DNA of 64,000 nucleotides from Bolinopsis microptera (taxonomy: Eukaryota; Ctenophora; Tentaculata; Lobata; Bolinopsidae), in the NCBI RefSeq assembly GCF_026151205.1, contig NC_087084.1:8676894-8740893 (forward strand), written 5' to 3'. The notes under the pieces are model-generated. The model saw only the letters and a program-made list of their open reading frames with translations, was not told the DNA's origin and did not search any database. Positions within the stretch are counted from its first letter, which is position 1, and the number at the start of each line of letters is the position of its first letter. Made by a program: the position numbers and the translations under genes. Positions 3,979-58,400 of this stretch are shown piece after piece.

Positions 3979-6690
3979 TAACTGCCTACTACACATTTGT
4001 ACACTGTACTTTTGCCTTTTTAGACTGATTTAACAATATTTACTTTCGTATTGATTATGGACGAAAAATTATCAGGATTATGAAAGTTTTACATTATTTT
4101 TGTTCCCTTTGAATTTGTTACAAATATTGTTTGTATTTTGAACACTTGATTCAACATGTGTGACAGTATAATTAAACGATTGTATTTTTAACCGATTCAG
4201 TAGTTTTAGTTGTATCCGAAATAACTTCCAAAATGCTACATAAGAGAACTGATACCTCCGAAAATAAGTATCATACGCTTCTCTTATTATATGGAACAAT
4301 CGAGTCTGACTTTTTATTTGTACACGTCAGCAAGCGTGTTCCTAGAATCCAATCTAGGATTGTGAATGAAACAGGAAATTAATCCACATAGGTCTCTGGA
4401 ATTTCAAACAATTGTTGTTGATTAAAGCGTTTCGGATAGATTTCTCCAATTTAGTTTCTTCGTAGTTCGATCCAATAATAAAATATAATTATTGTAACCG
4501 CTATTTCAAACCCGCTTATTTCTACAAATTGTCGTTGTAAACAGTCGTGCGCGCGATCAGTTTGAGAATTAATCGACTTTGGCGCGTTCCATAAATACGT
4601 AACTTCCTTGCTTCACCAGTTCTTGGCATAGGCTTTAGAAGAGCTGGTTTATATCTGGACCCTATTTCTCCACAACTGGTTGACGCCAAGGCCTCCGTTG
4701 AGTGCAGTCATCCCATCCATCCACTAAGCCAAATGCACAGTATATAATGAAGTAAAAGAGTTTAGCTACGATCATAATAGTGTAACATCAGGATAAACAC
4801 ATTTCTGAAGCTGTGAATTGAGAGTGCAGTGCGAGACTAGAGATTCAGAGAGTGGAGGCAGCCGGTAAGCGGATCTGAGATCTCACTGTGAAATAGTAGC
4901 CATCCAGCAATGTGAGTTGTGTGAGAGATGGTGAGACTCCTCATCGATGGTAGTTCTGAGAAAAGAGAGACGGATAGGTTTCGTAGGGATAGCAACTCAA
5001 TAAGGGCATCGAGTACGTCAACCAACCATTATTAGCTTACAATATTTTGAAATTTGAGGCAGTTCAGAAAAGTGTTTTCATCGTGGGGTACCGAGAAACA
5101 TTGCTTCCTGCAACTACAATCAAATGCAAAATGAAGTGGAATCCAGACTCAACACTGTTGGTATCAAAGAATGAGGGGGAACTATGTCAGGCCAACTATC
5201 CTAATCGATTAAATAACATGTGCAGTGCTTTATGGTAAGTTGTCTTGAAATTAGACTCAAAAATTGCTATTTTTAAATAACAATTTTGAAGGGCCAAGGT
5301 GCTTGTTTTCAAAACTAATGCAAATTTCTCGTGCGCATAGGAACCGAAACCAGATAGCTCACTTACTTTTCCATTAATCCAAGGGCGTCCTCTACAGTCT
5401 ACACCCGACGAAACACATTACCTTATATGGAATAACGACCGCTGTACACTTCTACCTACCTTTCGCTATATTATTAGAAGTTTTTTAAGGGTTGACTTGC
5501 TCAAAATCATACAGCTCCTGCTCTATAATACTCGTGGCTAATAGATTCTGGATGGGAGGTGAAGCATATTTTTCCTGACACGTGATAACGATTAACCAAC
5601 CAGCTTCCAACAATGGCCAATCAAATCCCAGAATCACTGTCACTTGTGAAAACAAATATGTTTCACCTCCCCCTAGTAACCACTACGAGCTATCGGGCCA
5701 GTCCCCAATCAGTTAGTATCTGATCTCTCACTCGATACTTTGGATAATTACTGAAGTTAAAGAAAAATAATAATGCGATCATAGTATTACTAAGTAATTA
5801 TTAATATTCGCTTATCTTAGGTACAAAAGAAATTATCGGCTCTCGGAAATTATCGGAATGTCAGCGGAGTTAAACATTACCCCCATTAACAGGTAATGAA
5901 ACTAGGTAGTTTCCTAAAGTATTTAGGAATTTATGGTGAATGTACACTCCCCTTAGAGGAATGTTTACGTTCCAGCTTCAGACTCGTTACCAGATAATCT
6001 CAGCAAAATTCGACTAGCAACCATGTACAACCTCAAACTTCTCGGCATTGTAATTGGTCAGCGAACCCCAATTATATAGCTCTGTACTGTGATTGGCGCA
6101 CACCCAAAATATTCAAATACAGCTTTCTGATTGGTCGGTGACCGTCACGTGACTCCTTAATAGCAGAGAGTTAAACGTTCATTTCCTCTGACTGTGATCT
6201 CCCAACAACATGATATCACGTGATCCTGTCTTAAACACCGGTTTCAAACACGAAGCTTAAGTCACGTGGTTACGTAAGCTCTCTCTCTCTCCCATAACAT
6301 ATTTGCTATTTAATTAGTTAATTTGGCAGTGGACCTCAAGATTTCCTCTCGAGTATTACTATTAGATATGTGAGATAACTGCAACAGTGCAATGCGTGTT
6401 TTCGAATAAGCAGGATTATGCTTTTGCATCTCAAATGCGATAGTGAAGTCCCGGCCGTAGCCCTGGGTTACACTACTATATTTATATTTACAGTATATAC
6501 TATATATTACATATTATAATATACATACTATATACAAGTGAGTGGAGATTAGATTACGATGAGTACAATATACTTACGCTTTATTATAATATTTACTTGA
6601 GCCGTATTAGGTATATATAGTGACTAACAGGTAACTGGTGTTTACTTGTGGATATTATTGGTGTGCAGTGCGTAATGTGCGTAGAGATCA
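3979..6690. other. Intergenic, no firm gene
   Basis: No convincing gene. A stretch near 5050-5234 reads open with several Cys and ends in a GTAAGT-type donor, but neither its acceptor nor a partner exon is evident. Arms at about 5550-5572 and 5640-5672 form an imperfect inverted repeat around GGGAGGTGAA. CACGTG and CCAAT motifs recur at about 5580-5610 and 6110-6270. Confidence 0.5.
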
Positions 6691-10784: not shown

Positions 10785-11988
10785 ATGAGGCAGACTTCGT
10801 TCCACCTTGCTACGTTGGTATGGTTGATTATTGATGCCGGATGCAGACATATACATACTCGAGAGTCACCTACGTTCACTGCTACAACTATGGATAGTAA
10901 AGGTAAACACTACTTTAAAGTTAAAATTTTAAAATTATCCATCATCAGTTTAGATGACGGCATTAATATAATCATGCCATACAAATTTAATGTTCCAAAT
11001 TTTATGATCAGTCTTGAATATTGCTTAGCTGAAATCACAGACCCTTCATAATCTAAAATATATCACAGATGATGATCTATCAATAGCATTGGGAGAATTT
11101 GGCTTGGATCTTAAAAACACTGACCTAAACTCAGTTCTACAACACAAAAAACCTGACTACATCTCATTCAGAGGAAAAGACATTCAGGAGCATCATAGTC
11201 TACAACATAGCGTAGTCAAATACCTGTTACAGTATGGTTATCTAGAAACAGTGAAACAGAAAACAGAGAAAGAGTTGGGGGATACCGTGATTGAGGAGGG
11301 AGATTTAAGTGCCGCTTTGAAGCGGTATCAGACTCTGTTTAGTCTAGAAGTTACGGGAACGGTTACAGAGGAAACGTTGGTTAAAATGAGGGAAGCCCGG
11401 TGTGGAATTAAGGATGAGGAATTTATAGCTTCAACAAGCAGGGTTAAGAGATACACTGTGAAGAGGAAATTGTGGAAGAAGAAAAGGTTGTTCTATTGGT
11501 TTGATCCTAAGAAGTACTCGGGCAAAATGCCAAAAGCCACCCAGCGACAAGTGTTGGAGAAGTCTATGGAGCTTTGGGCAAAGGTTGCGGGTGTAACGTT
11601 TATTGAGTTGCCAGCAAATAGAGGAAGGAGGGCTGACATTAAAATCAGCTTTGAGAGAGGTTCCCATGGTGACAAATACCCATTTGACGGATCTGGAGGT
11701 ATTGTGGCACACGCGTTTTTCCCCAGAAAAGGACTGCTTCATTTTGATGACAGTGAAGACTTCACGACGGAAACCACAAACGGGATCAACCTTCATTTCA
11801 TAGCAACACACGAACTAGGCCACATTCTTGGTATAGACCACACATTCCACGAAGATGCCATAATGTTCCCGCTGTATTCTCGTGTGTACCCAGATAAGAT
11901 AGAACTAGCTGACGATGATAAGAGCGCTGCGAGGGTTGCTATGGGAGGGGGAGTGGGAAGAGTGGTACCTCTCCGTAAGTGGAGCTGA
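10785..11988 (+). CDS. Secreted matrix metalloproteinase lacking a hemopexin domain
   Basis: Two exons, 10785-10902 and 11069-11988, joined in phase 1 (GTAAAC donor, ATCACAG acceptor), encode 345 residues. Order: signal peptide (about 1-20), PG-binding-like prodomain, cysteine switch ARCGIKD at about 149, furin-type site RVKR at about 163, catalytic domain with structural-zinc His/Asp residues, then HELGHILGIDH at about 286 and the Met-turn (AIMFP). The zinc-binding triad and catalytic Glu are intact. The protein stops about 30 residues after the Met-turn, so there is no hinge or hemopexin domain, as in the minimal MMP-7/26 layout. The switch has Ala and Lys where PRCGxPD is usual. It should cut extracellular matrix or surface proteins after furin activation. 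ATG 10785 is chosen because it starts a good signal peptide. Confidence 0.9.
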
Positions 11989-26790: not shown

Positions 26791-26994
26791 GTCTTACAAA
26801 AGTCCTTGGAATAAGGTTGACTTAACTTATTCTGTAAAACCCTCTGGTGTCGAGACTACTCCATCAGATCCCAAATTCGGATCCACTACTGTTAAGGAGA
26901 CCCGCATCCAGTAGGGACTGTTGGCGGTAAGCTACAGCTCCTGCTGGTAATCGACTCGGAAAACAGTACAGTGGTCCCCGTTTTTGGGTTGGAA

Positions 26995-28877
26995 ATGAAC
27001 ACCAGATCTAAAACAGTTCCCCAGTTAGAATCCACACTTACTGCTCCTATACCCCCTCCTAGAAGCCGTAAATCTCAAAATCCCACCTCCCTTAGTGAAA
27101 AGCATGCTCTCCCTATCCACATTCACAAAAGAGCACAAGAAATCCAAGCTCCTAACACAGCCATAGATGAGTTCATAACATCGGAAAGACTGAAATCTAA
27201 CAGACAACAGATCCTAATATCAGACCACAGCACCCAAGAAGATATCTGTCCAACATGCCACCTAGGTGTTCTTGCTGAACAAGATGGGCTCCTTTGTGAA
27301 CAGTGCAATGTCTGGCACCATCCCATTTGTGAGGAAATCAACACCAAAGAATACAAACACCTCCAAGATGAAAAGTTTGACATTGCATTTGTATGTGGTA
27401 ACTGTGAAAAACAACACCTTACTACATCCACCTTACCCCTCCCGGATGCAGTCATCGCATCGATCAACAGTGCAAAATGGGGAGTCCTAAAAGGTTTACA
27501 GATAAGGCCAGCTGTAGACTCTATCTACAAGAGGGTAGTCCTTTGGAAGAAGAACATGTTTAAGGTACCGAAAGGCAAGATAGGAGAGAGTTTTATTGAG
27601 GAAGTTGCCAATACCATCAATCTCTTTAACAGTGGCTCTAACCTTGAGAGTGTTGCAATTACTATGACGCTTATAATTTTTCCCCTCCTGCTCCAGAAAC
27701 CCTCCAAATCCTCTAAAGCCAAAGACCATGTAGCACACCTGGAAAGAAGACTCCAACTATGGAAAGATGGCGAAATAGAGAAGCTCGCTAGGGAATGTAA
27801 ATCAATACAAGATCGCCTACTCAAATCTAAGTACAGCCCAGGACATCACAACAAAGTCTTCACACGACTCATGTTACTAGGAAAAGTCTCTGCAGCCTTA
27901 AGATGGAATGGGAGCCAGAGAAGTAAACTCCTGGACACAAGCCCTACTGTCATACAGGAACTCATAAAGAAACACCCCGAAAGCAGCCCATCACTCGAAT
28001 CTAGTCTGACGAAGGGACCCATTGAAGAAGTAGACAACGTCATATTTGATTCCATTGATTCCAGCAGAATTGAAAAGGTTGCAAGAGACCTCAGCGGATC
28101 TGGTGGGCCCTCAGGAACTGATGCAGAGACATGGCAGCATATTCTCTGCTCTAAGCAGTTTAAGAAAAAGCCTGAACTTCTAAAAGAAGCAGTTGCAGTT
28201 TTGGCCAGAAAGCTGTGTTGCCAAAAGATACAGCCCGACCACCTGAAAACATACATAGCAGGTCGCCTCATCCCCCTTGACAAAGACCCAGGGGTTAGAC
28301 CCATTGGGATTGGTGAAGTCCTTAGAAGAATAGTCGGAAAAGCAGTGATGACCACATTGAAAAAGGACATTATCATGAACACAGCACCCATGCAACTGTG
28401 TGGTGGCTTACAAGGAGGAGTGGAAGCTGCCATTCATGCAGTCAGAAAGATCTTTGAAGAGGAATCCACAGAAGCGATCCTGCTTGTTGATGCTGAAAAC
28501 GCCTTCAATGCATTAAATCGCAACACAGCCCTTAGGAATCTTCGATACACCTGTCCAGAACTATTCACTTACATCCTAAATACATACAGTCAAGAAGCTA
28601 ACCTATTCATCGCCAACAGTGATGACCACTTACAATCTCAGGAAGGAACTACACAGGGAGATACCTGTGCACTCGGATGGTATGCACTGAGCCTAATGCC
28701 TCTGCTCAGAGAAGTCCAGGTTAAACAGACAGAACCTGAAACAGAACTAGGATCAGACAGGGAACCCAACACTTATCCCAAACAAGTTTGGTATGCTGAC
28801 GACTCTGCAGCAGGGGGTAAACTTGATCAACTCACGAAATGGTGGGAGGACCTTAAAGATCATGGTCCCATGTATGG
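26995..28877 (+). CDS. R2-like retrotransposon protein, N-terminal part: PHD finger and reverse transcriptase
   Basis: ATG 26995 is the first ATG in frame. Residues about 84-145 form a C4HC3 PHD finger: CPTC, CEQC, WHHPIC, CGNC. A basic helical linker follows, then the reverse transcriptase: RPIGIGEVLRRI at about 434, catalytic Asp in LLVDAENAF at about 492, GTTQGD at about 551 and YADD at about 600. The frame ends where the copia LTR begins (28878), leaving a short foreign tail. The enzyme would copy its RNA onto a nicked chromosomal target. R2 proteins usually carry CCHH fingers and Myb at this end; a PHD finger suggests binding to a histone tail, which is inference. The insertion should inactivate this copy. 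Confidence 0.88.
28873..28877 (+). repeat. Target-site duplication, left copy (TATGG)
   Basis: TATGG directly precedes the TGTTAG end of the copia LTR and is repeated at 35176-35180. Five bases is the usual duplication for Ty1/copia integrase. Confidence 0.95.
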
Positions 28878-29178
28878 TGTTAGATGACTCTAAGTTGACC
28901 AATTAAAACCAGTAATTGTCGTATGTACAAAACCTGTAAAACGCAATACTTTATTACATAATAGAATAACTTTACAACCAAATTAAACCAATTCCAAATA
29001 TATACCTAATAACTAAACATTGTAAATACTTACCGATTGGACGGTAGTGTGCTGCCAATGTTCCACTCCTCCCCAGTCCAATCGGTTATCCTTCTTTGGT
29101 AGTCATTGCTAGAAAGGGTAAGCACGGTTAGAAGTATTCTGTCACGAAAGAGAGAGAAAGGTGTGAACAGTAATAACA
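28878..29178 (-). repeat. Copia 3' LTR
   Basis: 301 bp, downstream of the pol stop on the coding strand, preceded by the polypurine tract. Identical to the other LTR at all but one position. Confidence 0.95.
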
Positions 29179-30171: not shown

Positions 30172-33100
30172 CTATCTTTTGAGATATTCGTCCAAGTGAA
30201 AGTATCCTGTTTCAAGAATCTTTGCCAAATCTCCACTGGAGACACCCTTCTTTGTTAAACAGTCAGCCAACATTTTTGGTGTAGGAACCCATCTGAACTC
30301 TCCTATTACCCCTTTATGTAAGTTTTCCTGCAGAACGGCTATATCAAGGACTAATCTTTTATCTTGACACAAACTGCTGGAGTGTACATTATCATAGAGT
30401 TGTTTTGAATCAATCAAGACAACAATCGGGATCACTTCATTATGCGGATCTCTGAACAACATTTCTGACAACACTTGTCTTATATAGATCGCTGCAGCTG
30501 TGCCAGAAGTACAGCTAAGTGTTTCAGCAGCGAATATAGAGTGCACGACTCTCTTAACTTTATTGCTTGACCACGCTATCAGGTTTGCTACATTTCCATC
30601 TGCAAGGAAAATAATGTAACCACTAGCACTATGCTTGGTTCCGGAGATGTTGCCCAAGCTTGCATCTGTGAAGCACAAGAGGTGTAAGTTTCCTTTCTCA
30701 ATATCTAATTTTCTATAGACTACTCTTTTTGGCCCGTCAGCCAATTTCTTTGTTACCTTATTTAAACTTTTAAGGTGTTTAACTTTCTTGGTACTGTAAG
30801 TGGAATGTTCCAGAGTGTCAAAGGATAAATCAGGTCTGGTTTGAGAGCTCAACCACAAAAGTTTTCCCAATAGCTTTTGATATTCTACTAATTCCTCCTC
30901 CGTGAGGTCACTCTCTGCTTCCGTACATCTGCTACTAGCTATATCCACTGGTCTTATAGCTAATGCGTAATCTCTTTGATCGACGTATATGTCTTTTTCA
31001 TTCTGCACCACTTTCCACCCAAGATAGGTGAATACTCCCGTATAACTTCTGCTGATTTTGAACGTACTGTAGATTGATTTTATTACAGTGTTCTTGAATC
31101 GGGTTGTTCCACAGTGCAGTATATCATCAACGTGTGTAACCATCACTCCTTGCAATCTGTTGTTCTCGTAATATCTAAACAAAGATTTATCTAACTTTGA
31201 GATCTCACAGCTAGAAGTCTCAGTCAGATGTTCCTTAATAGTAACGTACCATCTTCTTGCACTGTCACCAAGTCCGTATAGCGGTTTAAGTAATTTCCAG
31301 ATTACTCCTCGCTTCCTTATATCACGGGGAGGTTTAACAAATACGTCTCTCATAGTTCCTTTAGCTTGTAGAAAAGCACTGGTTACATCTAAAGTGTCAA
31401 CAGTCCAATTATATGAAGCTGCTAGTGAAAATAACAGTCTAATAACTACCTTAGTTACCGTAGGAGAGTCTTTCCTCATGACACAATTCTCCTCGAAACC
31501 TCTAGCAACCAGTCTTGCTTTAACTTGCTCATCGTTTTCTCCCTTAGTAGTTACTACCCACCTTGATGATACATGACTTTGTCCCGTATCTTTAGTTTCT
31601 TGGTATACTCCGAATTCTGACAGTCTTTTCAGTTCCTGTTCCTTAGCAACGTCTATCTTCTTTGAGTCCTGTATTCCGATTGCGAAGATATAAGGCTCAG
31701 CATCTTCTTGCGTCAATAGTACAGTTGTATTCCTTTGATTACCTTCTTGTTTCTCAACATGATGCTTTTCCAAATCTACTATTATTGGCTCTTCCACTAG
31801 ATCCTGTTCGATTTGAAATGAATTTCTCGAACATTCTGACGTCTTGTCAGCTCTCTTCTCGATCATTCCGTATTTCCAAGGTTCCTCATCCTCAGATCTA
31901 AAACGTATCACATCTCCTCTAATCAGTCGGATTTTTGTAGAATCCCCAGATATACTATTCCAGATTGAGTTGTCTGTTTCTGTATTAGCTTCATCTACCT
32001 CCGTCGAGGTTTCCGTTTCTGTGGTTTCAGCAGAGACATCTGTTATAGAAGAGACGTCTACATTCGCTGTGTCATCTACATTCACTGTGTCATGAGATTC
32101 TATAGATTGAGCCCTATCTTCTACCAATGTTTGAACAGTTGTTACTGGGGCCTCCTCGTCCTCATCTTCTATATCATCAAACTCTATAGACTGAGTAGTA
32201 TTTTCCCCAGGCCTAACTTCCTCCACTGCTGCTCGATAAACCGACTCGGAGATTATAATAGGCTTACCAACATTCCCCTGGCCCTGCAAGGTTGCACCAC
32301 TTCCTTCAATTTGTTCTTTTGCTCTAGATTTAAGAACCACTTTACACGGATGCACTCTCATGATGTGACCCCCGTGCTTGATCAGAACTTGATTAGCAAC
32401 CTGTCCTATTAGTGTTGCTGGTCCATACCAGAACTTTTTACTTCTCTTGAAGTACACGAGATCGCCACTGCAATATCTATAGTTAGCTTGCGGAAATATC
32501 CTCTGTTGGAGTGCTCTCTTGAGCTTGTCGTTAGCTTCTAATTCAACAAACTTCAATCTAGCCAGAGAGAGAGCGTTGAGGTGATCACTGACTATTTTAA
32601 GAACACCTTCGTGGTTTAATGTTCCAGGAGTCATATTTTCTTCCATGATTCCAGGAACCCTTGGGTTTGTTCCGAATACTAGTTGGTGAGGGCTGAATCC
32701 GTATGTATTACTGAGAGAATTTTTAGCACTAACAGACCACGCTATAGCAATTTCAGGATCACATCTCATTTCTTCTAACAAAGATTTTATCATGCATCCC
32801 AAGATGCCGTTGTGTCGTTCTACAATCCCATTGCACCAAGGTGAATACGCTGGCGATGTCTGAATCTTGATGTTCAGTACTGAGCAAGCTTGGTTAAAAC
32901 AATCATTTACAAATTCTCCTCCATTATCTGATATGAAGGTCGATGGTGGTCCAAATATGGATATCCAATGCTTAAATACCTTATCAAGTATTTCTTGAGC
33001 TTCCTTGCTGATCACTCGAGCTGCCACAGAATACCTTGTTACGGTATCAACCATATGTTGTAAAGTCACCTCATCATTTATAATTTTTAAGTCCATAGCA

Positions 33101-34686
33101 ACGACTTCATTAAAAATTGAAGCTTGAGGGATTCCCACTTTCCTCTTCGGAATAGATCTAGTCTTGTACTTCAAGCAAAAATCACATGTTTGATCAATCT
33201 TCTCAAGCTCCTCTATGATCTTATTACCATCTTTCAACTTTGCGTTTTTGATGACTTTACCTATCTTCGCAGCTGATGCGTGAGCGTAGTAACGGTGATA
33301 AAAGTCAGCAGTTTTTCCACAGTCTTGCTCTTCAGACACTTGATAAGTTACTCCACTTTCTTGCCCATCTCCACAACGTGCAATCGGCACAGCTACATGA
33401 CCCGATTTTGTACTCCGCAACTTCTCCAGTGTTTTGCTGTCTTTTATTTTTAGGGTCATATTTTCCATGTCTAGTACCATACCCATTTTCGTCATGGTTT
33501 GCTTCGCTAGCAAAAGAGGAATATCGTTCGTCACCACGTATGTTTTCAAAAACATATCTTTGTTGCAAAGGTTAATAGGTATAGTTTTCAAAGCAATCGA
33601 CTTCACTGGCTTACCATCTCCAAATCGAAATGTCCTTTCAGTAGTCTCAGTCTGTATCAGTTTCATCTCTTCTGTAGTCAAAGAGCTTTCATACACTGTA
33701 AACCACTCCTTTCCACAGATGGTTGCACATGCCCCTGTATCTATCAACGCTTTGTTCGTACATTCACCTGTTAAGTAAATTATCTCTTCTTCGCAATCTG
33801 GAAGTGAAAAATCTGATTCAAATAAAGCGTAGACCTTTCTGCGAGAGTCATCATCTTGTTTTTGATGAGATTTAGCGAATGTGTTAAAAGAACACTCAGC
33901 GACAACATGACCTGGTTGATGGCATATAAAACAACTGATCCTTTGGTTACTGCTCCCCCTCATGTAAGACTTTTGTCCTCGTTTCTGTGCATATGGGTTG
34001 AATCTAGACTGCCCTCTATTCTGACCGTAAGGGTTATATCTGTTTTCCCCTCTCATAGGTTGACCAGTGAAGTTTCTTTGATGATCCCCATTTCTAGTCC
34101 AGTGCACGTCAGACCCCATTTGCTGATCCTCAGTTAGAAAGACGGGTTCCTGCTTTACCACCTCCATTGGAGTACTTTTGAAAGGCAGACTGGATTGATT
34201 CTCATTCCTTGTAAATCCATCTCCAAATGTCCTTTTTAACTGTTCTTGCATCAAGTTATAAGATAATGTACTAGTGCAAGTTGCTCTAACTAATCTGGCC
34301 TGTTCATCGTTTAGGCTAGCCTGATTTAACAGTCTATATGCTAATATCATATCGTCATAGAGCTCTTTGCTTTCTCTCAGCTGTTTAAGGATCTGATACC
34401 TCCGCTGGAATTCCAAGATGTAGTTGTCGATATCTTCTCCATCTCCTCTTCTATATCTCTCAAAGTCGTCTATTGCCTTAAATAAAGACTGAGTACCGTC
34501 CTTCTTGTACAGTTTGTCCAGTTCAGCAATGAGTTTATCAACTCCATCTTCAGCTCCTAGAACCTTTATTGGTATATTTATAGAAACCTCCTGTGGTTTC
34601 CCATTCATGTTCATGATAAGTTTACTTGCTTGCTGTTTCACTGATGCTCCGGTTCCAAGCTGCCATATAAGCACTTTTTTTTCCAC
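30172..34686 (-). CDS. Copia Gag-Pol polyprotein
   Basis: One frame of about 1500 codons. Order: Gag with CFICHQPGHVVAEC zinc knuckle (residue about 252), aspartic protease LIDTGA (about 315), integrase with HH-CC (CDFCLKY) and DDE core including SDNGGEF (about 588) and VERHN, then reverse transcriptase with LDVTSAFLQA and THVDDIL (about 1188), and RNase H with CFTDASLG (about 1338) and ADCLTKKG. Integrase before RT defines Ty1/copia. The RT box is HVDD, not YVDD. The frame as drawn opens at a GTG. The likely true start is ATG 34736, whose frame is offset by one base across a run of eight A (34675-34682), so Gag is frameshifted at its 17th-20th codon or the run is miscounted. Everything after that run is intact. 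Confidence 0.95.
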   Translation of the reverse strand: MEKKVLIWQLGTGASVKQQASKLIMNMNGKPQEVSINIPIKVLGAEDGVDKLIAELDKLYKKDGTQSLFKAIDDFERYRRGDGEDIDNYILEFQRRYQILKQLRESKELYDDMILAYRLLNQASLNDEQARLVRATCTSTLSYNLMQEQLKRTFGDGFTRNENQSSLPFKSTPMEVVKQEPVFLTEDQQMGSDVHWTRNGDHQRNFTGQPMRGENRYNPYGQNRGQSRFNPYAQKRGQKSYMRGSSNQRISCFICHQPGHVVAECSFNTFAKSHQKQDDDSRRKVYALFESDFSLPDCEEEIIYLTGECTNKALIDTGACATICGKEWFTVYESSLTTEEMKLIQTETTERTFRFGDGKPVKSIALKTIPINLCNKDMFLKTYVVTNDIPLLLAKQTMTKMGMVLDMENMTLKIKDSKTLEKLRSTKSGHVAVPIARCGDGQESGVTYQVSEEQDCGKTADFYHRYYAHASAAKIGKVIKNAKLKDGNKIIEELEKIDQTCDFCLKYKTRSIPKRKVGIPQASIFNEVVAMDLKIINDEVTLQHMVDTVTRYSVAARVISKEAQEILDKVFKHWISIFGPPSTFISDNGGEFVNDCFNQACSVLNIKIQTSPAYSPWCNGIVERHNGILGCMIKSLLEEMRCDPEIAIAWSVSAKNSLSNTYGFSPHQLVFGTNPRVPGIMEENMTPGTLNHEGVLKIVSDHLNALSLARLKFVELEANDKLKRALQQRIFPQANYRYCSGDLVYFKRSKKFWYGPATLIGQVANQVLIKHGGHIMRVHPCKVVLKSRAKEQIEGSGATLQGQGNVGKPIIISESVYRAAVEEVRPGENTTQSIEFDDIEDEDEEAPVTTVQTLVEDRAQSIESHDTVNVDDTANVDVSSITDVSAETTETETSTEVDEANTETDNSIWNSISGDSTKIRLIRGDVIRFRSEDEEPWKYGMIEKRADKTSECSRNSFQIEQDLVEEPIIVDLEKHHVEKQEGNQRNTTVLLTQEDAEPYIFAIGIQDSKKIDVAKEQELKRLSEFGVYQETKDTGQSHVSSRWVVTTKGENDEQVKARLVARGFEENCVMRKDSPTVTKVVIRLLFSLAASYNWTVDTLDVTSAFLQAKGTMRDVFVKPPRDIRKRGVIWKLLKPLYGLGDSARRWYVTIKEHLTETSSCEISKLDKSLFRYYENNRLQGVMVTHVDDILHCGTTRFKNTVIKSIYSTFKISRSYTGVFTYLGWKVVQNEKDIYVDQRDYALAIRPVDIASSRCTEAESDLTEEELVEYQKLLGKLLWLSSQTRPDLSFDTLEHSTYSTKKVKHLKSLNKVTKKLADGPKRVVYRKLDIEKGNLHLLCFTDASLGNISGTKHSASGYIIFLADGNVANLIAWSSNKVKRVVHSIFAAETLSCTSGTAAAIYIRQVLSEMLFRDPHNEVIPIVVLIDSKQLYDNVHSSSLCQDKRLVLDIAVLQENLHKGVIGEFRWVPTPKMLADCLTKKGVSSGDLAKILETGYFHLDEYLKR

Positions 34687-34874
34687 GTGCTGTAGTCAGC
34701 GCTATCGTCTAACACAGGTATCTCACGAAGACTCATGATTACCGTTTGACTAAAAAAAAACTCCCAAAGTGTCTCTAAAAAAACTCCAAAATGTCTCTCA
34801 ATGTCTCTCAAAAGAAAACAAAAGTTCCACAGTTGTTAGGTCGTTGGGTAGATCGTCCTGCTTCCTGCTATCAC

Positions 34875-35175
34875 TGTTAGATGACTCTAAGTTGACCAAT
34901 TAAAACCAGTAATTGTCGTATGTACAAAACCTGTAAAACACAATACTTTATTACATAATAGAATAACTTTACAACCAAATTAAACCAATTCCAAATATAT
35001 ACCTAATAACTAAACATTGTAAATACTTACCGATTGGACGGTAGTGTGCTGCCAATGTTCCACTCCTCCCCAGTCCAATCGGTTATCCTTCTTTGGTAGT
35101 CATTGCTAGAAAGGGTAAGCACGGTTAGAAGTATTCTGTCACGAAAGAGAGAGAAAGGTGTGAACAGTAATAACA
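34875..35175 (-). repeat. Copia 5' LTR
   Basis: 301 bp, ends TGTT...AACA on the coding strand. It should hold the promoter of the element. Target duplication TATGG follows at 35176-35180. Confidence 0.95.
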
Positions 35176-36618
35176 TATGGGTATTACCCAAAACCCAGCA
35201 AGACATGGTTGATAGTGAAACCAGAGCATGCAACCAAAGCTAAGGAACTCTTTCCAGATGTTCAGATCACTACCAAAGGCCACCGTTATCTTGGGTCATA
35301 TATTGGATCAGAAGAAGGAGTAAAAGAGTTCATACTAAAGGAGACCGAAAGTTGGAAAGCAGACATTCTTGGACTGGTCGAAATAGCTGCAAACAAACCC
35401 CAGCTAGCCTACTCCGCTTTCATCTACGGAACCTCCAAAAGATGGAATTTTGTTTGCCGTACAACCCCAGGGATTTCCGACCATCTGAAACTCTTGGAAT
35501 ATTGTGTCAAGGAAGACTTTATACCAGCCATTATGGGCAAAAGTTTTGTGCCCGATCAAATCAGAAAAATAGCTTCACTTCCTGCAAGATTGGGCGGGCT
35601 GAGCATTCCAGACTGCACATCAACAGCAGAGATGGAGTACACTAACTCAGTAAATGCTACAAAACAGCTCACAGAAGCAGTTTTTCAACAGCTTACTACT
35701 TTCCATCTAAACGAAGAACTGCAGCATGAAATCATAAGTGAAGGAAAGAAGCGTAAGGAAGAGCTTTACAAACACCAACGTGAAACTATTATGAATGAGG
35801 TATCCCCATCAACACAAAGGCAATTAGAACTCCTTAGTGAAAAAGGAGCATCCATTTGGTTATCCACACTCCCGCTAAAAGCATGTGGGTACGTCCTTAA
35901 CAAACAAGAATTCTTTGATGCCCTCTCACTCAGATATAATCTTACACTATCTACAGCTAACAGAAGTCCCCTATGTGTATGTGGAAATCAAAATCATATC
36001 AACCATACCCTAACCTGCAAAATCGGAGGCTACGTTTCACTTAGACACAATTCACTAAGAGATACAATAGCTGAACTCCTAACCACTGTTTGCAAAGACG
36101 TTGAAACAGAACCCCAGCTTCTCTCCGTTCCACCCACACTTGAACTATCTAATGGAACAAATAGACAGGATGGTGCAAGACTGGACATCAGTGAGAGATC
36201 GTTTTGGTCGCCGCTGGACAGGGCATTCACAGATGTAAGGGTACTTCACCCTCAAGCCCAGTCCAACAGTGACAAGAGCATCTCACAGATGTACCAATCT
36301 CACGAGAAAAGCAAAAAACGTGAGTACAATGACAGAGTCCTAAATGTTGAAAAGGCTACCTTCACGCCACTGGTGTTCAGTACTACAGGAGGAATGGCAA
36401 CCGAGGCTTCACAGTTCCTAAAACATCTCGCTGAAAAGATCAGCCTAAAGAAAGGCCAACGATATTGTGATGTGATGTCATTTGTCAGACGCAGACTGCG
36501 TTTTGATCTACTCAGAACCTGTATAATCTCTATCAGGGGGTACAGAGGTACCAGAACCCTTCCACCCACGGCAATAAGTGATTTGGACCTTAACCTGATC
36601 AACACTCCTAAACCCTAA
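35176..36618 (+). CDS. R2-like retrotransposon protein, C-terminal part: CCHC and restriction-like endonuclease
   Basis: Coding resumes right at the second TATGG (35176) in the same frame as the N-terminal part and ends at TAA 36618. It holds the end of the RT (PSKTWLIVKPEH, then KGHRYLGSYIGS), a helical thumb region, and a CCHC knuckle at about 35971-36020 (CVCG, NHTLTC) followed by the RHN motif. The PD-(D/E)xK-type endonuclease comes next: ARLDI at about 36177, FTDVRV at about 36227, and KKREY at about 36314. This order (RT, CCHC, RLE) is that of R2/R4/NeSL-group elements. The usual RPD is RxD plus LDI here, so the exact catalytic residues need alignment. Confidence 0.82.
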   Translation, partial: YGYYPKPSKTWLIVKPEHATKAKELFPDVQITTKGHRYLGSYIGSEEGVKEFILKETESWKADILGLVEIAANKPQLAYSAFIYGTSKRWNFVCRTTPGISDHLKLLEYCVKEDFIPAIMGKSFVPDQIRKIASLPARLGGLSIPDCTSTAEMEYTNSVNATKQLTEAVFQQLTTFHLNEELQHEIISEGKKRKEELYKHQRETIMNEVSPSTQRQLELLSEKGASIWLSTLPLKACGYVLNKQEFFDALSLRYNLTLSTANRSPLCVCGNQNHINHTLTCKIGGYVSLRHNSLRDTIAELLTTVCKDVETEPQLLSVPPTLELSNGTNRQDGARLDISERSFWSPLDRAFTDVRVLHPQAQSNSDKSISQMYQSHEKSKKREYNDRVLNVEKATFTPLVFSTTGGMATEASQFLKHLAEKISLKKGQRYCDVMSFVRRRLRFDLLRTCIISIRGYRGTRTLPPTAISDLDLNLINTPKP

Positions 36619-38439: not shown

Positions 38440-41400
38440 ATGGTCATGAACATTTTCGAAGCAGACTTCAACTCTAATTCAATGAAGGAATCGGAGCAAT
38501 CATTTAACAAAGGAGCATTTCCAACTTTTAATCACATGTTTAACACAAATTCCTTCTTTGGACACAATCCTGAAGAAAATACGGGTTCTTACGATCCATT
38601 TACTGCCAGAGAAATCAGTTCTGATCTGCCCAACTCTAATTTTGATAGTTCTTTTCTCAACAAGGATTCTCCATCTGAATCATCATTTTTTACCAATCAC
38701 AGCAACCTATTTGAGGATCAACCTAAATCATGGAACCAGCAATGGTCCAACGGAGACCCTGTGGACACTTATACATATCATAGTCTACCAACCTCAACCT
38801 GCTTTGGACTGCCGGATAATCAGAATAGTTTGATATCTTCATCACCTGGGCAATCTCGTATTATGGGTTACTTGAATAACACCCCTCCATTATCTACTCC
38901 ACCATCAACCATATCTCCTACCCATAATATCGAATCGATGAAAGTTCGAGATTTTCTTAATCATCCCTCTGGAAGCCTGACTAATTTGGAGCCTTCTTCT
39001 TCTTCGTCGGCTGTGCCTAGTCAGACTGCACCTAATGGAAAGGAAGAGTTGGTTGTATATCAACGGGAAAGCTCGGAGTCATTTTTCACTGATTTCTTTA
39101 CCCCAAATTTCCAATCAATGTCGATAGATGATGGGAAGAAGCTTTCAAGTGAATCTGTTGAGTCTGACAATCAACCTATTAACGTGTGGGATTCTTTAAA
39201 TACTATTGATCTGAAGTAAGTTCAACAGTATTTAGATATTTTTACTGCACGTTGTCACTTTATAATCTGCTAACATTTTTGCAATATTTCTAACAAAAAA
39301 ACTGATAAAGATATTGCAATTTAAAGTAATGACCATTTGACAAGGTTGAGAAAAATTTAAATATCAACTTTTAATAACAAATTTACTTTTTAATAACATT
39401 CCACAACTTTTTTCAGTGTGGGATTATCTACATCAGCACCGTCAAATATACCCTCTAAAAATGCTTGGAGCAAGCCTCTCAAGTTTGAACGATCAACAAA
39501 TGCTATTAAGAAGTCTAAATCTAGGTACGTTCGTTTTTAACCAGGTTAGATTTATCAGATATTCGATTTGTTCGGGAATTTGCTTGTTTAAGGTTTCATA
39601 ATGTATCTAAATATAATTGAAACGTTCTTCATTAGACTACACAATTCGATTTATTGTAACTTTTCTCTTCTTTCAAGAGGCCTCTAAATCGAGCTAATCC
39701 ATGATTTTATACAGACTAAAGTATTGGTTCAATTCACTGATAATAAACATTCCTCAGTTCTACTGCACAACAATTTAAAAAGCAATCTCCTCCTTACCTG
39801 GACCAGAGGCAAAGAATTCCTGAGCCGGTACCTGAGCCAGTCGTTACTGCTTGTGTTGGCAAGAAAGTCAGCGAGCTGGACGATTTTGATTATTCCATGC
39901 CTAAGAGATCTGTCATTACTAATGTTAGACCCGGTGGATTTCAGGTATGATTTGACTTTGGTTACAAATTGACTTAAGTTATCTAAAAAAGTTTCAAAGT
40001 TATATTTGTAAGTTTTGTTACAAATTATCTAAAGGAACAACAAAACGTTTGTTGTCCCTTAAGATAATTTGTAACTTTATGGTTAGATGTAAAGGTTTAA
40101 CTGTAGCTTTCAGTTTTATTTTATGTCCTATAGTAACTGAATAACATATTTAATGTAATTATTATAACTGATAGGCGTGCAAGAAATTCCTGAGCCGAAT
40201 AGGGCCGGTAGCTCAATTGGTAGAGCACCAGGCATGTAACTCGGAGGTTGGCGGATCATACCCGCCCCGGCACTATGCCGGCCCATGATTTTCCGAATCG
40301 CTTACCAGTGGAAATCTAGTCAATTCAAATATCTGCTTATATGCTTGGTATTCATGGTCGATAAAATCACAGCCCAACCACATTCTTGACCAGATCACAT
40401 GTGCATACGACATCCTTGGGAGCCGTCAGTTGAGCTTGCTCTCTGACTCGTGGGTTGAAAACATCGTGTACAGTACTTCGTGAGTAGTACAGTACTTCAC
40501 AACGATAATCCGCCTCCCCAATCGCAAATTAAAAACATTACACACAGTATGCACACTCACAAATATGGCAGTGAGTATCCCAGGTGCATATAATGCAGTG
40601 TACTAATAGCAGCAGATATGAGATAACGACACGATTGCTTACTGATAGGCGTGCAAGAAATTCCTGAGCCGAATAGGGCCGGTAGCTCAATTGGTAGAGC
40701 ACCAGGCATGTAACTCGGAGGTTGGCGGATCATACCCGCCCCGGCACTATGCCGGCCCATGATTTTCCGAATCGCTTACCAGTGGAAATCTAGTCAATTC
40801 AAATATCTGCTTATATGCTTGGTATTCATGGTCGATAAAATCACAGCCCAACCACATTCTTATATTTAATGTAAATTAGATTATAATTATAATTATAATT
40901 CTAATGTAAAACAAATGAAATGCAGTAGTGAGATCACCATAACTTTCGTATTTTCTACACGTCATGTCATTCCGCAATAAATTCGCTTTTCGAAATCTTG
41001 GATTAAGTCAGACACTTATTTTACATGTTCATTATTAGTTCTTATCAGTTATCGTAGTTAATGTGTGTAGGTGATGCGCCCCTTGTTTATGAATCTTCTG
41101 ATTTCAAGGATTGCTTCACCTTCTTTGTAGCAGTATGAAAAATTGAATGAGGTCTATGTGATCTCACACAGAGTGTTAACTGCTAGCTTCAACGATGTAA
41201 AGTTTGCTTTCATAGCAACACATGAAATATATCCTTGTGTTTGACAAGATTCAATAGTTTCACCTAGAATACTCATCTCCATGATCTCGTATATTAACTT
41301 TTTTAACGCGTTCGTGGATAGAAAATACTCTATTTATGTCATTCATATATAGTATGAAGGACATGTATACAACATTTTCTGAATAATTTTAAACTAATAT

Positions 41401-52400: not shown

Positions 52401-55400
52401 TTGTATGCTTAATTAATAGGTTAATTAAGTTTATGTTAGTACATCAACTATAGTTGTGATCGGTTAAAATCACATTTTTCTACACAACATCATGTAAAAA
52501 AACAGAAATTAACTGTAACAATTCAGTTTGAATTCGGGTATTAGTTCTGAACGCTGTAAAAAAAAGTGAGGAAACAACGTAACAACTTAAAAATTACCCC
52601 TTCTCCAAGCTTCAAAATATTTCACATACCTAAACATATTTTACATATTCTACATACCTAAACAAAGCACATTGGTAAACATCCTCAGAAGAGCTAGAAG
52701 AACTTTCTCTTTAGTTGAAACCAGTTTCTCTTTTTGATCGTCCGAAGTTAATTCTTCTTTTAGACTCTGAAAATTAAGGGACATTGTACGATTATAAAGA
52801 ATAGTCAATAGAGAGGTTTAAAGAATCCTTGGGAATGAAACAGCTCTGGACAGCTCAGGACTCCTGATTTAAGGGTGAAACAGTTGGATATGAGAGCTCT
52901 GGACAGCTCAGGACGCCTGATTTAAGGGTGAAACAGTTGGGTATGGGAGCTCTGGACAGCTAGCTCAGGACTCCTGATTTAAGGGTGAAACAGTTGGATA
53001 TATATGAGCGAATGTTATTAATGTAGATATATCCTAACCTTTAAAATACTTTTGCTCTTGAGGATGGCTGACTCTTTGTTTTCTATGTTGTAATCCCATC
53101 CTCCGAACACTAGTTCAGAGTACGGATTGTACCCAACTATTTCGATAGCTGATTTCTTGAACAGTTTCATCATACTGAAGATAAATAGTTGTCAGTTGCT
53201 CGTTATCATCCATACTTCTAATCTGTAGGAGTAATTTTAATGGACAAAAAAATGTATTATACATACTCGATTGAATTCACTTATCAATACAAATGTTAAT
53301 TTTTCTTTAATGAAAAGAATGCTTACTTTTTGATAATGAATAGGAGAGAAAGTAGGAAATAAGAAAGTCCGACCAAGACATATGCCAGAGCAAAGTTGTA
53401 AACAATTCCGAGCCTCTGCAGGAATTTCAGTCATTATTATTGGAAATTGGGCAATTATAACATCAATGAAAATAGAGACCGAACAATCATAACAATCGTC
53501 TATTAATATAAGTTTAAAGGAAAGTAAGTGAAAGTGAATCAATCGACCAACCCTGCACGTGTCGCACTTGAGACCCAAATCTTCCTTGATTAAAGAAAAC
53601 TGGCAATCTGCCGCCCCGAATGTAGCGTCTTCACCCAGATTAAAACATGTATACTTCCCATCATCACCAGACACATCGATAACCACCGAGCCACGGATCT
53701 ATCAATATCATCACAGGAATCGCCACATTTGTAACATTTTATTGAACATTGTTGCCTTTCTTCTGCAGACAGTGTTTTATCTATTGTGGTTGGACAGTTG
53801 ATATCTGTGAGAAGAGAATATTATTGCTCATACATTTATATTAATCACGTATAACAGTGTAAGGCAGTCAAAACACTTTTATTAGTAATGTGATATATAA
53901 GTTAGGTAAATAAATTAGATAAAACGTTAGGCAATATCAGTACACACTAACAACAACCAAAGTGGTGAAATTCTTTTCGCAGATTATTTGACAACAAGCC
54001 AGGAAATATCACTCACCACAATCTAACTTTCCCTCTGTAAAATCCTCCTTGTGATCCTTATCTTCCCCATCAAACTCTATTTCATTGTATTTTCTCTTTG
54101 CTTCGTCACCCTCTCCCTCGATTGGATTGTCGAAAGTTCGACATCGGTATCTATCATCTGGCTTACAACCAGATTCTCTGTATTTAATCTGCAATTGAAA
54201 ATAGTGAAAATATCGAAATTTATCTACCGCGTCTTAAATATAGTGAAAACCGAAAAAGTGCAATATTATTGTGTAAGAAAAGATTGTTCAACTAAAACTG
54301 ACGAAACTTACGTTTTTATTAGTTATATTCAGGGGCATATACCATCCAATATAAAGTGGTGTCTTTTCCATCCAACCCTGGAAATAGGACAAGTTAGTTG
54401 GGTTATAATACCCATCCAATACAAACCCAGTTTTGGGTATTTCTTTTGAAAGACGAAACACATTTACGCATGGTATGCCAGCGCAGCGCAGCATTTTAAT
54501 TTTGCGCGCACCTTTAACGTTAGTAAACTTTAACATAAAGACTCCGAACAAAACTAGCAATAGGAAAGTTTGCGAGAAGGTCTAAGTTTTGATTTTAAGT
54601 GAACACGATTTGGTAATTGTTCAAGGACTTCTTTGAGCAATTCATATCTGTCTACATTAATGGATGTCGTGCACGCGCAAATTAACAGTCTGGAAGCTTT
54701 TAGTGTGATTAATATTCCAACTTCCACAGGATTATGTGCGAAAGCATCATTTTGGAGCTGTGTTACTTGTAGAATAGCATTTAGCAATAGAATAAAAGTT
54801 AAGTACAGCCGAAGATAAGCTTTGATTTGTACAATTGTCTTGATATGTCCGAGAATATTTGAGATTGAAGATTTAAAAATCAATCAAGAATTCAAATTAT
54901 GCAAACAGGATAGAAAATAAATTCTCACCGTTCCGGTTAAAAACTGTAGCAAAGTATTGGCATAATTGTGCCATATCGGTGCATCAGTGATATTCAAAAA
55001 GTTAGGATTTGTGCACGTCAGGTTATCTGCGTTGTACAGTGTTGGCGTGTGAATTCCTTCCTCCTGGCCGTGTAACGTCTGGAAAAGTACCAGTACAAAC
55101 TCATAAAAGAACCATTAAATATTAGAAAATAACAATATATATCGAAATGATAGTTGGTACAGATGGTCGGAACTGTTGATGACCTGGGTACAATTTACTT
55201 GTACAATAGATCAGGTGGAAACTTATTATAACAATAATGAAAGTGTAGGTCACGATAAAGGTAATGAAAGTGTAGGTCATGATAAAGGTAATGAAAGTGT
55301 AGGTCATGATAAAGGTAATGAAAGTGTAGGTCGTGATAAAGATAATGAAAGTGTAGGTCATGATAAAGGTAATGAAAGTGTAGGTCGTGATAAAGGTAAT

Positions 55401-58400
55401 GAACGTGTAGGTCATGATAAAGGTAATGAAAGTGTAGGTCATGATAAAGGTAATGAAAGTGTAGGTCATGATAAAGGTAATGAAAGAGTAGGTCATGATA
55501 AAGATAATGAAAGTGTAGGTCATGATAAAGGTAATGAAAGTGTAGGTCATGATAAAGATAATGAAACTGTAGGTTTTTACATATAATCCAGGAACGGTGA
55601 TAAAGGACAGAGCCACGATAAGGTTCAGAAAGTTGATTTTCAGAAGCCATCTCAGAACACGAAAGTATGTTGAGACTCCAGAACCAAGATTTCCTTCAAC
55701 TTCTCGGATTGGTCCGCCCCAAATCCTGCGGGTTAATCAATCGAGTCAGCAGTCATTGATTATATTTGGTGGGTTATTGTTATAAAAAACAATCAGTGAC
55801 GGTGCCTGGACCAACATACAGAATAGTTAGGATTGCGTAATTTAAAATATTGCGATTATACGGATTTATTGAATCATCATTTCATTCATGCATCTAATTA
55901 TTCTAGAATATATTCAAACTTTCAAACATTAATAAAATGCACGAATATATCGATACATGACAATGATAAAATCGACACAGCGATTAGTCCTTACTTGTAA
56001 TCGTTAAGGCCCTCCGTGAATTTCTGCCACGATCTCTGCACGGTTAAGGATATATTGTACCCCAACCAGGTACAAAGAGGCAAACTCTTTATCTCAAACT
56101 GCTCCATCTAGTGGATATCAGGATGTTTAAAATATTTCCTTGTGTTGAGATTGAGCACATTTCCATTTGATCAAGAATTGTAAGTTCAAGGAGTGAACTT
56201 TATTATGAAATATAATTTTGTTTACGAACCAATCTACACTAATTTTATCAATTTTTACCTGATTGAGTTCCTCCCTTCTGAGTGTCCTCCTATCCATAAT
56301 GTTCAAACTCTCGCCAGGCCCCCGTTTTACGCTGCGCCGACTGCGGGCTTTGAGAGTGCCCCGCACGCTGCGCCGACTGGAGGTGGTACGTTTGAGACTA
56401 CCAGAGGAGACGGGACGCATCTCCACATCTCCATCTTGTGACGGTCCAGGTTGATCACCAGTTTCCTGTAAAATAGGTGCTCGTTACAAAGTTACAACTG
56501 GGGTAAGTTCTGTACCTTGTGAAACATAACTGGACGATGTGAAATTCTACTTCACTTTGGCGAACTGTACTGTACTACAGGTCAAATTAACTGACCCTAA
56601 CTTGGACAGCCCACAAAACTGTACAGTATTATAACAGATTCATTTGGTCGTTGGAAATTAGAGTCCTCTATTTTTAACGAGTTTTATTGAATACCACGCA
56701 CGAAACATTCAAATCACACATTCTAACCGCAGATAATGATAATCAGTAATCCAGATTAGGAACAAGACTTTACATTACAGTACACCAAAAGTGTGTTATA
56801 TGTACCAGGTAGGTAACAGGTCAACACGCCTTAAGCCTAGGCTCATGTTACAGGACAGTGTATTATTTGCACCGTAAACAAAGGGCTGATAAACATACAT
56901 CCCTGCAGTCTTGTTATAGGAATATTCTAAATATGTGGCCTAGGAATTTTGGTAATAAGATCTATGTGAACAAGTCTTGTCTAGAGTAGGTGATAGAAGA
57001 GGGATCAAATTCATTGATAAAAATTATTATTATTAGATGAGATCCAGGCTGACTTTGCAGAGTACTATTTAAAATCTCATGCTAAAACTCAAAACGGTTA
57101 TGTAATGTTCAGTGTAAGTTTCATCCAACAACAAATTTATGACTTGAAAGTAGCTGCTAATTTACTGTTGAGTAGCAAAGTTTTCAAATGCATGAAAATA
57201 CAGTTGCCAATCTGGAGGTGTATCAAGAAAGTTTATAATTCTCTATAATCATTTTTCGATCTTTCTGCATGGGTTTATTTATAAATAATTCAGCAGAACC
57301 TTTAATGAGATTATCAACGAACTCTAAGAAACCATTTCTGTTTAATATGATTGAACAAACTCCCACAACCGATAATAATCAACCTTCAAAATACACAACA
57401 ATCACACAGTTAAGTAATAATGTAACAAATTAATTGAAATATAATTATTAATTAGTGGTTACTTTTACTAATCGAAATATAATTAGTGGTTACTTTTACA
57501 CTTCATGCAAACCTCTTCTATAACGTCTGATTCTGATATTGAAAACTGAATTGATATTGTGTCATGAAGGATCTACCATGTCTCATCAACTTTATTGACG
57601 CACTCAAATTCCTCTAAGACTAACCTCTAAGCTCAAACCATATCATTCTAAACAACACAATGATTGTCATAGTAAGACAATGTCAAACTATTCCATAACT
57701 TTTCTTAACAGAAATGGCAAAAACACTTTTTTGACAAAATCCAAGTTTTGTCCGTTGAACCATGTGCTCTGAATTGGTAACCAGATATCATCATAATATT
57801 ACGTTCAAATGTAACAAGTGAAAGGCTTAGTTGAGGTTCACAAACTTCAGATTGTGCATTGGCGATTTAAACTAGTTTTCTGCATGCAACTGTCATCTTC
57901 CCTCAAGCTTTTCCCTAATAAAAATAATTTAAAGTTAAGTAAAAAGTAAAAATATGAGACTTTGAAATGTATGAAATAAAGCACACCTACCTCCTGCTTA
58001 GTTTCTCTCCTTTTCTTTGAACTGTGTCTTGTCCGACTAGGTAACTGAAAACAGGATCATATTACAAAGTTACAAGGACCAAATTAAACAAATTATTATA
58101 TTATCACCGATGTGATGATAAGAGATTGAGTTGTATTATTTTAGTGGTGTTTGTCACCTGTCACCAAGTCGTTATATGTTTTTAAGTAACAATCTAACTT
58201 CAACACATCAAAATGGTATCTTGCTATATCTTGCTATATCTTGCTATATCATGCTATATAAAATCCCGAAAGCTTAATACCAAAAAGGGTTTACATTTAA
58301 AGAAACAAGCATGCTTCAAAACAAAGTTGTACATAGAGATACATTAAAAAAGTTAAATCAAAAGCGTGTTTAATCAGCAAACAAGAAGTGTTTTATCTTA

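What the first reader, a model, noticed from the sequence alone, without database searches (positions are those of the whole stretch)
53552..54188. TMC protein with a large Cys-rich insertion in the first extracellular loop
Two exons add about 140 residues with around 12 Cys and a strongly acidic stretch between the GWMEKTPLYIGWY block and TM2 (YNFALAYVLVG). In TMC proteins as I know them these two blocks are nearly adjacent. An extra disulfide-rich ectodomain could be a tether or ligand-binding part of a mechanosensory channel.
Basis: partly seen in the sequence, partly recalled or inferred. Interest (0 to 1): 0.75.

Follow-up and report, generated by a model that had tools for sequence, protein, structure and literature searches.

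The report
Comb-jelly TMC channel with cysteine-rich loop cassette
A touch-channel-like (TMC) gene, probably from a comb jelly, carries two extra exons that could add a cysteine-rich outer domain, but the second exon has a broken reading frame in this assembly and the gene reads intact without them, so RNA data must decide.

Summary
The window holds a TMC-family gene on the minus strand. None of the six other TMC loci found in this genome has the insert, nor do C. elegans TMC-1/2. (1) Exon B changes frame: its first part (5 Cys) and last part (4 Cys) are in different frames. As assembled, including A+B gives a stop after TM1; the '12 Cys, ~140 residues' reading silently crosses this break. (2) A+B form a phase-0/phase-0 cassette: without them 17 exons join in frame into a 707-residue TMC. 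Best reading: an optional acidic, Cys-rich ectodomain cassette, the break being a sequence lesion (two other genes here show similar breaks). Main rival: a poison or dead cassette. Mouse Tmc1 also varies this loop by splicing (exon 9 skipping), so a splice-variable first loop is not new; an added Cys-rich module would be. The genome is very probably the ctenophore Bolinopsis microptera (inferred). A tether or ligand role is inference only.

The parts
54017..54188 (-). Cassette exon A, 172 nt, enters phase 0, leaves phase 1; 57 residues, 3 Cys, acidic
   Evidence: splice scan and translation
53552..53804 (-). Cassette exon B, 253 nt, enters phase 1, would leave in phase 0 after a frame change inside; 5 Cys before and 4 Cys after the break
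53593..53699 (-). Stretch in which the reading frame must change for exon B to be coding throughout
   Evidence: stops bounding the two open frames: ORFs 53590..53820 and 53237..53698
54312..54377 (-). Upstream flanking exon E7 (GWMEKTPLYIGWYMPLNITNKN), ends in phase 0
53327..53415 (-). Downstream flanking exon C (RLGIVYNFALAYVLVG..., TM2), starts in phase 0
55581..55725 (-). Exon E5, with TM1 by alignment; its donor is weak
   Evidence: tblastn with paralogs and splice scan
54929..55078 (-). Exon E6, first part of the TM1-TM2 extracellular loop
48339..56465 (-). Span of the 17 other exons joined here (E3-E7, C-N), 707 residues in frame; both ends of the gene lie outside this span and were not modelled

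Best explanation
This is a ctenophore TMC channel gene whose first extracellular loop holds an optional two-exon cassette. Spliced in (with the frame change in exon B being an assembly error or a rare allele), it adds about 142 residues: an acidic arm (exon A) and a disulfide-rich module (exon B; 12 Cys in all, an even number). Spliced out, the gene makes a standard TMC. The module would stand outside the membrane just before TM2, on the loop that in worms contacts TMIE, and could serve as an extracellular handle (to matrix, cilium coat or a partner) that changes force coupling or gating between isoforms. Shown: TMC family, loop position by alignment, phase symmetry, absence of the insert from the other TMC loci found in this genome, the frame break. 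Inferred: species, translation, disulfides, optional splicing, any role in force sensing.
For: Gene joined without A+B is a 707-residue TMC, 17 exons without a frame break, Pfam TMC E 2e-28, C. elegans TMC-1 E 1.4e-38 and TMC-2 E 5.5e-27. In the TMC-1 alignment the insertion point falls between residues that I count as N256 and K257 (by eye), close to TM2. The cassette is symmetric: E7 ends in phase 0, C begins in phase 0, A to B is phase 1; within the range scanned, skipping only A or only B gives no in-frame option with a positive splice score (best -4.9 and -3.4). Codon score of A and of late B exceeds every stop-free intron window compared. Frame changes inside what aligns as continuous coding sequence also occur in 2 of 9 other coding stretches looked at: L005 (TMC on C3) and L007 (glutamate receptor). 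The published B. microptera assembly was made with wtdbg and polished with pilon. The six other TMC loci lack the insert. [quoted passage not shown]
Against: Exon B as assembled does not read through. Seven of the nine other coding stretches show no proven frame break, so an error just here is not the default expectation. Synonymous codon choice gives no support for A or B, and the codon score is a weak judge: for 7 of 17 control exons over 10% of intron windows score as high. Exon A scores high partly by base composition (other frames 0.25 and 0.26 against 0.42). The B-C junction is weak (3.1), while the direct E7-C junction scores 5.2, about as good as E7-A at 5.5. No homologue of the insert over cut-off in Pfam, PDB, this genome or IMG/VR. 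No RNA data and no second ctenophore were available.
Confidence: 0.52

Rival explanations
1. A+B is a poison or decayed cassette. The assembled sequence is correct; including the exons yields a stop in exon B after TM1 (nonsense-mediated decay), and the working channel is the skipped form.
For: Reading A+B as assembled ends in a stop within exon B; the skipped form is complete and in frame with a direct junction score of 5.2; the first part of B does not look coding by codon score (234 of 1013 intron windows as good).
Against: The last part of B keeps a coding-like open frame that matches the phase of the next exon (0 of 638 windows as good), and Cys are dense in both halves, as if both belong to one domain.
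Confidence: 0.27
2. Exon B is real but shorter: it ends at a donor inside (53667 or 53634) in the frame of its first half, giving a smaller insert without any frame error.
For: Donor CTG|GTGATG at 53667 joins to the TM2 exon in frame with a combined splice score of 4.0, and 53634 with 2.3, against 3.1 for the full exon's donor.
Against: Leaves the coding-like last half of B (4 Cys) untranslated; the extra residues (RSVARWLSMCL) look unlike a soluble loop; scores come from my own rough matrix.
Confidence: 0.12
3. A and B are not exons at all: open frames and splice-like sites by chance inside one intron of 896 nt.
For: Long open frames that run through intron sequence occur in this gene (for example 55122..55736); the flanking donor and acceptor pair directly in frame.
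Against: A and late B both beat every intron window compared on codon score; P of 12 or more Cys in 139 codons is 0.002 at the intron TGY rate, though chosen after the fact and across a frame break; the phases of all three introns are compatible if the frame change in B is allowed.
Confidence: 0.09

Closest known systems
Mouse Tmc1 exon 9 skipping (PMC7920537; passages read)
   Same: Alternative splicing that changes the first extracellular loop of a TMC channel
   Different: There a 33-residue piece of the standard protein is removed; here a long Cys-rich piece absent from paralogs would be added
C. elegans TMC-1 (7usw) and TMC-2 (8tkp) (PMC9605866, PMC10895266; passages read)
   Same: Same family and alignable TM1-TM2 loop, about 60 residues in TMC-1; extracellular loop length varies in TMCs, e.g. 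TM5-TM6 about 200 residues in TMC-1 and 125 in TMC-2
   Different: No insert between the two blocks; the worm's long loop is TM5-TM6, not TM1-TM2
Ctenophore TMC repertoire (alpha to delta, and Tmc-X) in Erives and Fritzsch 2019 (PMC7003098; abstract, section 14 and passages read)
   Same: Ctenophore-specific TMC duplications; this gene should be one of them if the species is right
   Different: Lengthy, fast-evolving loop segments were trimmed from that data set, so an insert may not have been seen; none is mentioned in what I read
The other TMC loci of the same genome (five on C11, one on C3, a lower bound)
   Same: 40-47% identical to the skipped form for the C11 proteins, 33-37% for the three C3 pieces
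   Different: None has the insert; three are single open frames of 732 to 795 residues as listed

Membership tests
TMC (transmembrane channel-like) family | Pfam TMC domain PF07810 above gathering score | tested here: met
   99.6 bits against cut-off 25, residues 463-569 of the joined exons
TMC (transmembrane channel-like) family | Similarity along most of a structurally known TMC | tested here: met
   7usw E 1.4e-38 in two stretches, query 94-451 and 462-691
TMC (transmembrane channel-like) family | Ten transmembrane helices, mechanosensitive conductance | not testable with these tools
   helices inferred by alignment only; no physiology
TMC channel complex as in worms and vertebrates | TMIE partner encoded in the genome | tested here: inconclusive
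   no match over the Pfam cut-off for PF16038; 27 weak matches to the same model positions 19-48, best E 0.31; short or divergent exons could be missed
Known disulfide-rich domain families | Match of the insert to a curated domain | tested here: not met
   Pfam lists only RHD3_GTPase at E 0.075 and 0.27, far under cut-off; PDB best E 2; both with the guessed join at the frame break
Ctenophore Tmc alpha/beta/gamma/delta/X clades | Placement in a tree with named ctenophore TMCs | not tested
   no named ctenophore TMC sequences were available

The most novel reading that the evidence does not exclude
Ctenophores evolved a mechanosensory channel with a built-in extracellular disulfide-rich handle, switched in or out of the TM1-TM2 loop by a two-exon cassette, perhaps doing outside the cell what separate partners such as TMIE or protocadherin do in other animals.
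Probability: 0.2. Interest if true: 0.7.

Novelty: new variant of a known kind. Interest (0 to 1): 0.42.

Why it matters
How force reaches TMC channels is an open question, and the TM1-TM2 loop is a TMIE contact in worms. A natural channel with an extra ectodomain on that loop, in a lineage where Pfam found no TMIE here (a weak negative), would allow a direct test of whether force can enter through the channel's own outer loop.

Tried and rejected
Mini-intron to explain the frame break: with splice sites close to the break, no GT-AG intron of 4 nt or more restores the frame. Allowing any GT-AG, GC-AG or AT-AC intron anywhere inside exon B gives 93 in-frame options; the three shortest (5 to 14 nt) are implausibly short and the longer ones delete ever more of the open sequence; I judged none compelling.

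Insert copied from elsewhere: the DNA search of the genome finds only itself (that search skips very common words). The protein search finds only itself plus one place on C5 at E 0.47 (E 2.5). I fetched it: its 126-residue open frame has three Cys, with the same C-x3-C-x2-C spacing as three Cys of early exon B (by eye), and is otherwise hydrophobic towards its end. I treat it as chance, but it is not settled; my notebook entry says 'no Cys match', which is wrong. IMG/VR scan: 4 stretches matched a pattern, none a relative.

Species test by glutamate receptors against PDB: the rows shown (60 best of each) give molecule names, not organisms, and settle nothing. Species is inferred from assembly figures: 264.65 Mb and contig C11 of 20,825,282 bases, all matches on C1-C13, against 265 Mb, N50 20.8 Mb and 13 chromosomes for B. 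microptera. Against it: 232 contigs here, 346 scaffolds reported. Window GC is 37.2%, genome GC reported as 38.5%.

Full report
What is there. The window is G000:C13:8676894-8740893 of a 264.65-Mb genome. Total size, the length of C11 and the fact that all matches lie on C1-C13 fit the lobate ctenophore Bolinopsis microptera (265 Mb, N50 20.8 Mb, 13 chromosomes; PMC11797021, table seen as a passage), though the contig count differs (232 against 346). The identification is inferred. A TMC gene runs on the minus strand. Paralogs from the same genome located its exons, and a splice-site scan joined them. Two junctions (E5-E6 and F-G) were set to the second-ranked option because it agrees better with the paralogs, and the E3-E4 and M-N junctions, for which the scan gave none, were set by eye; the result was checked by translation. 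Seventeen exons (E3-E7, C-N) then join into 707 residues without a stop or frame change, a clear TMC (Pfam E 2e-28; 7usw E 1.4e-38). The exons at both ends of the gene were not modelled.

The insert. Combined splice scores: E7-A 5.5, A-B 8.8, B-C 3.1, and E7-C directly 5.2. They come from a rough generic matrix of mine. Five paralog rows aligned with the form without insert show GWY and the YNF-like block 5 to 16 residues apart, and no insert; the sixth locus, L004, is 99.8% identical to L003 over 464 residues. The family search gives lower bounds, so further TMC loci could exist.

The frame of exon A runs on in exon B down to a stop at 53592-53590; the frame of exon C is open in B only from 53698 on. 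A+B is 425 nt. So about 140 added residues are possible only if the frame changes between 53699 and 53593.

Is it coding? A log-odds codon score trained on six long open frames of the same genome gave A 0.42 (0 of 464 stop-free intron windows as high), late B 0.34 (0 of 638), early B -0.05 (234 of 1013). Windows overlap, so these counts are not independent. The 17 control exons of the same gene ranged from -0.02 to 0.43, and for 7 of the 17 more than 10% of intron windows scored as high, so the score is a weak judge. With amino-acid content removed, no part of the insert stood out (A 115/464, early B 337/1013, late B 130/638). Exon A also scored 0.25 and 0.26 in its other frames, so part of its score is base composition. 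The evidence favours coding for A and late B but does not prove it.

Assembly error or biology? In 9 other coding stretches looked at (two genes of L001, L002, L003/L004 counted once, L005, L006, L007, L008, and the 17 exons of this gene), two, L005 and L007, change frame inside what aligns as continuous coding sequence; L008 ends early for an unknown reason. The published assembly was made with wtdbg and polished with Illumina reads and pilon (PMC10232365, one section read). Residual indels are thus a fair explanation, but not demonstrated here.

Position and mechanism. In the alignment to C. elegans TMC-1 the insertion point is just before TM2 (residue numbers counted by me). The worm papers describe the TM1-TM2 loop as extracellular, about 60 residues in TMC-1, with density consistent with glycosylation in both proteins, and touched by TMIE (W25 to L228 in TMC-1; R23 and W25 in TMC-2) (PMC9605866, PMC10895266; passages). 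A module there would sit near a suspected force handle. This genome gave no TMIE match over the Pfam cut-off, a weak negative. A bird TMC2 construct without the first loop, TM2 and part of TM10 still scrambled lipids (PMC12236488, passages), so the loop need not matter for every TMC activity. I propose an optional extracellular handle; every functional step is inferred.

Known background. Mouse Tmc1 skips exon 9, removing 33 residues of the first extracellular loop, in cochlea and testis (PMC7920537; passages). So splice variation of this loop is known; addition of a Cys-rich module is what would be new. Paper searches for TMC with ctenophore, Bolinopsis, Mnemiopsis, Cys-rich domain and first-loop terms showed no title or abstract reporting such an insert: 20 of 62 listed; 5 of 5; 12 of 211; 12 of 23; none found; 1 of 1; 12 of 72. 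Supplements were not read. Ctenophore TMC duplications are described in PMC7003098, where lengthy loop segments were trimmed.

Verdict. A real TMC gene with an unusual candidate two-exon cassette in the first extracellular loop, translation unproven because of a frame break. New variant of a known kind, interest 0.42.

Noticed in passing
window 55235-55574: 27-bp minisatellite, 12.6 copies, 95% matches, in the E5-E6 intron; exon E5's frame stays open through it (ORF 55122..55736), giving a hydrophobic repeat, before a stop.
   Followed up: partly
window 30172-34695 (-), 26896-28887 (+), 35164-36618 (+): A 1507-residue open frame on the minus strand that looks like a copia-type element (by eye) lies between two plus-strand open frames, the first with weak RVT_1 and PHD matches (E 2.8e-5 and 8.2e-4, both under cut-off); perhaps a nested insertion.
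   Followed up: partly
window 11029-11988 (+): Matrixin (Peptidase_M10) open frame, E 6.2e-43, with a PG_binding_1 domain at E 4.2e-5.
   Followed up: no
window 40202-40274 and 40676-40748 (+): Two tRNA genes with the same Rfam score whose starts are 474 bases apart.
   Followed up: no
L003 and L004 (C11:16.59 Mb and 16.79 Mb): Two TMC copies 99.8% identical over 464 residues, about 197 kb apart: recent duplication or unremoved haplotype.
   Followed up: partly
L001 (1379-3766 and 4791-7049, -), L002 (726-2924, +): Three TMC paralogs are single open frames of 795, 752 and 732 residues as listed, while the window gene has at least 17 exons: possible retrocopies.
   Followed up: no
L005 near 4128-4179: The TMC gene on C3 also changes frame inside what aligns as a continuous exon, like exon B here.
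   Followed up: partly
L009 719-1099 (C5): Open frame with a C-x3-C-x2-C run spaced like three Cys of early exon B, E 0.47; probably chance.
   Followed up: partly
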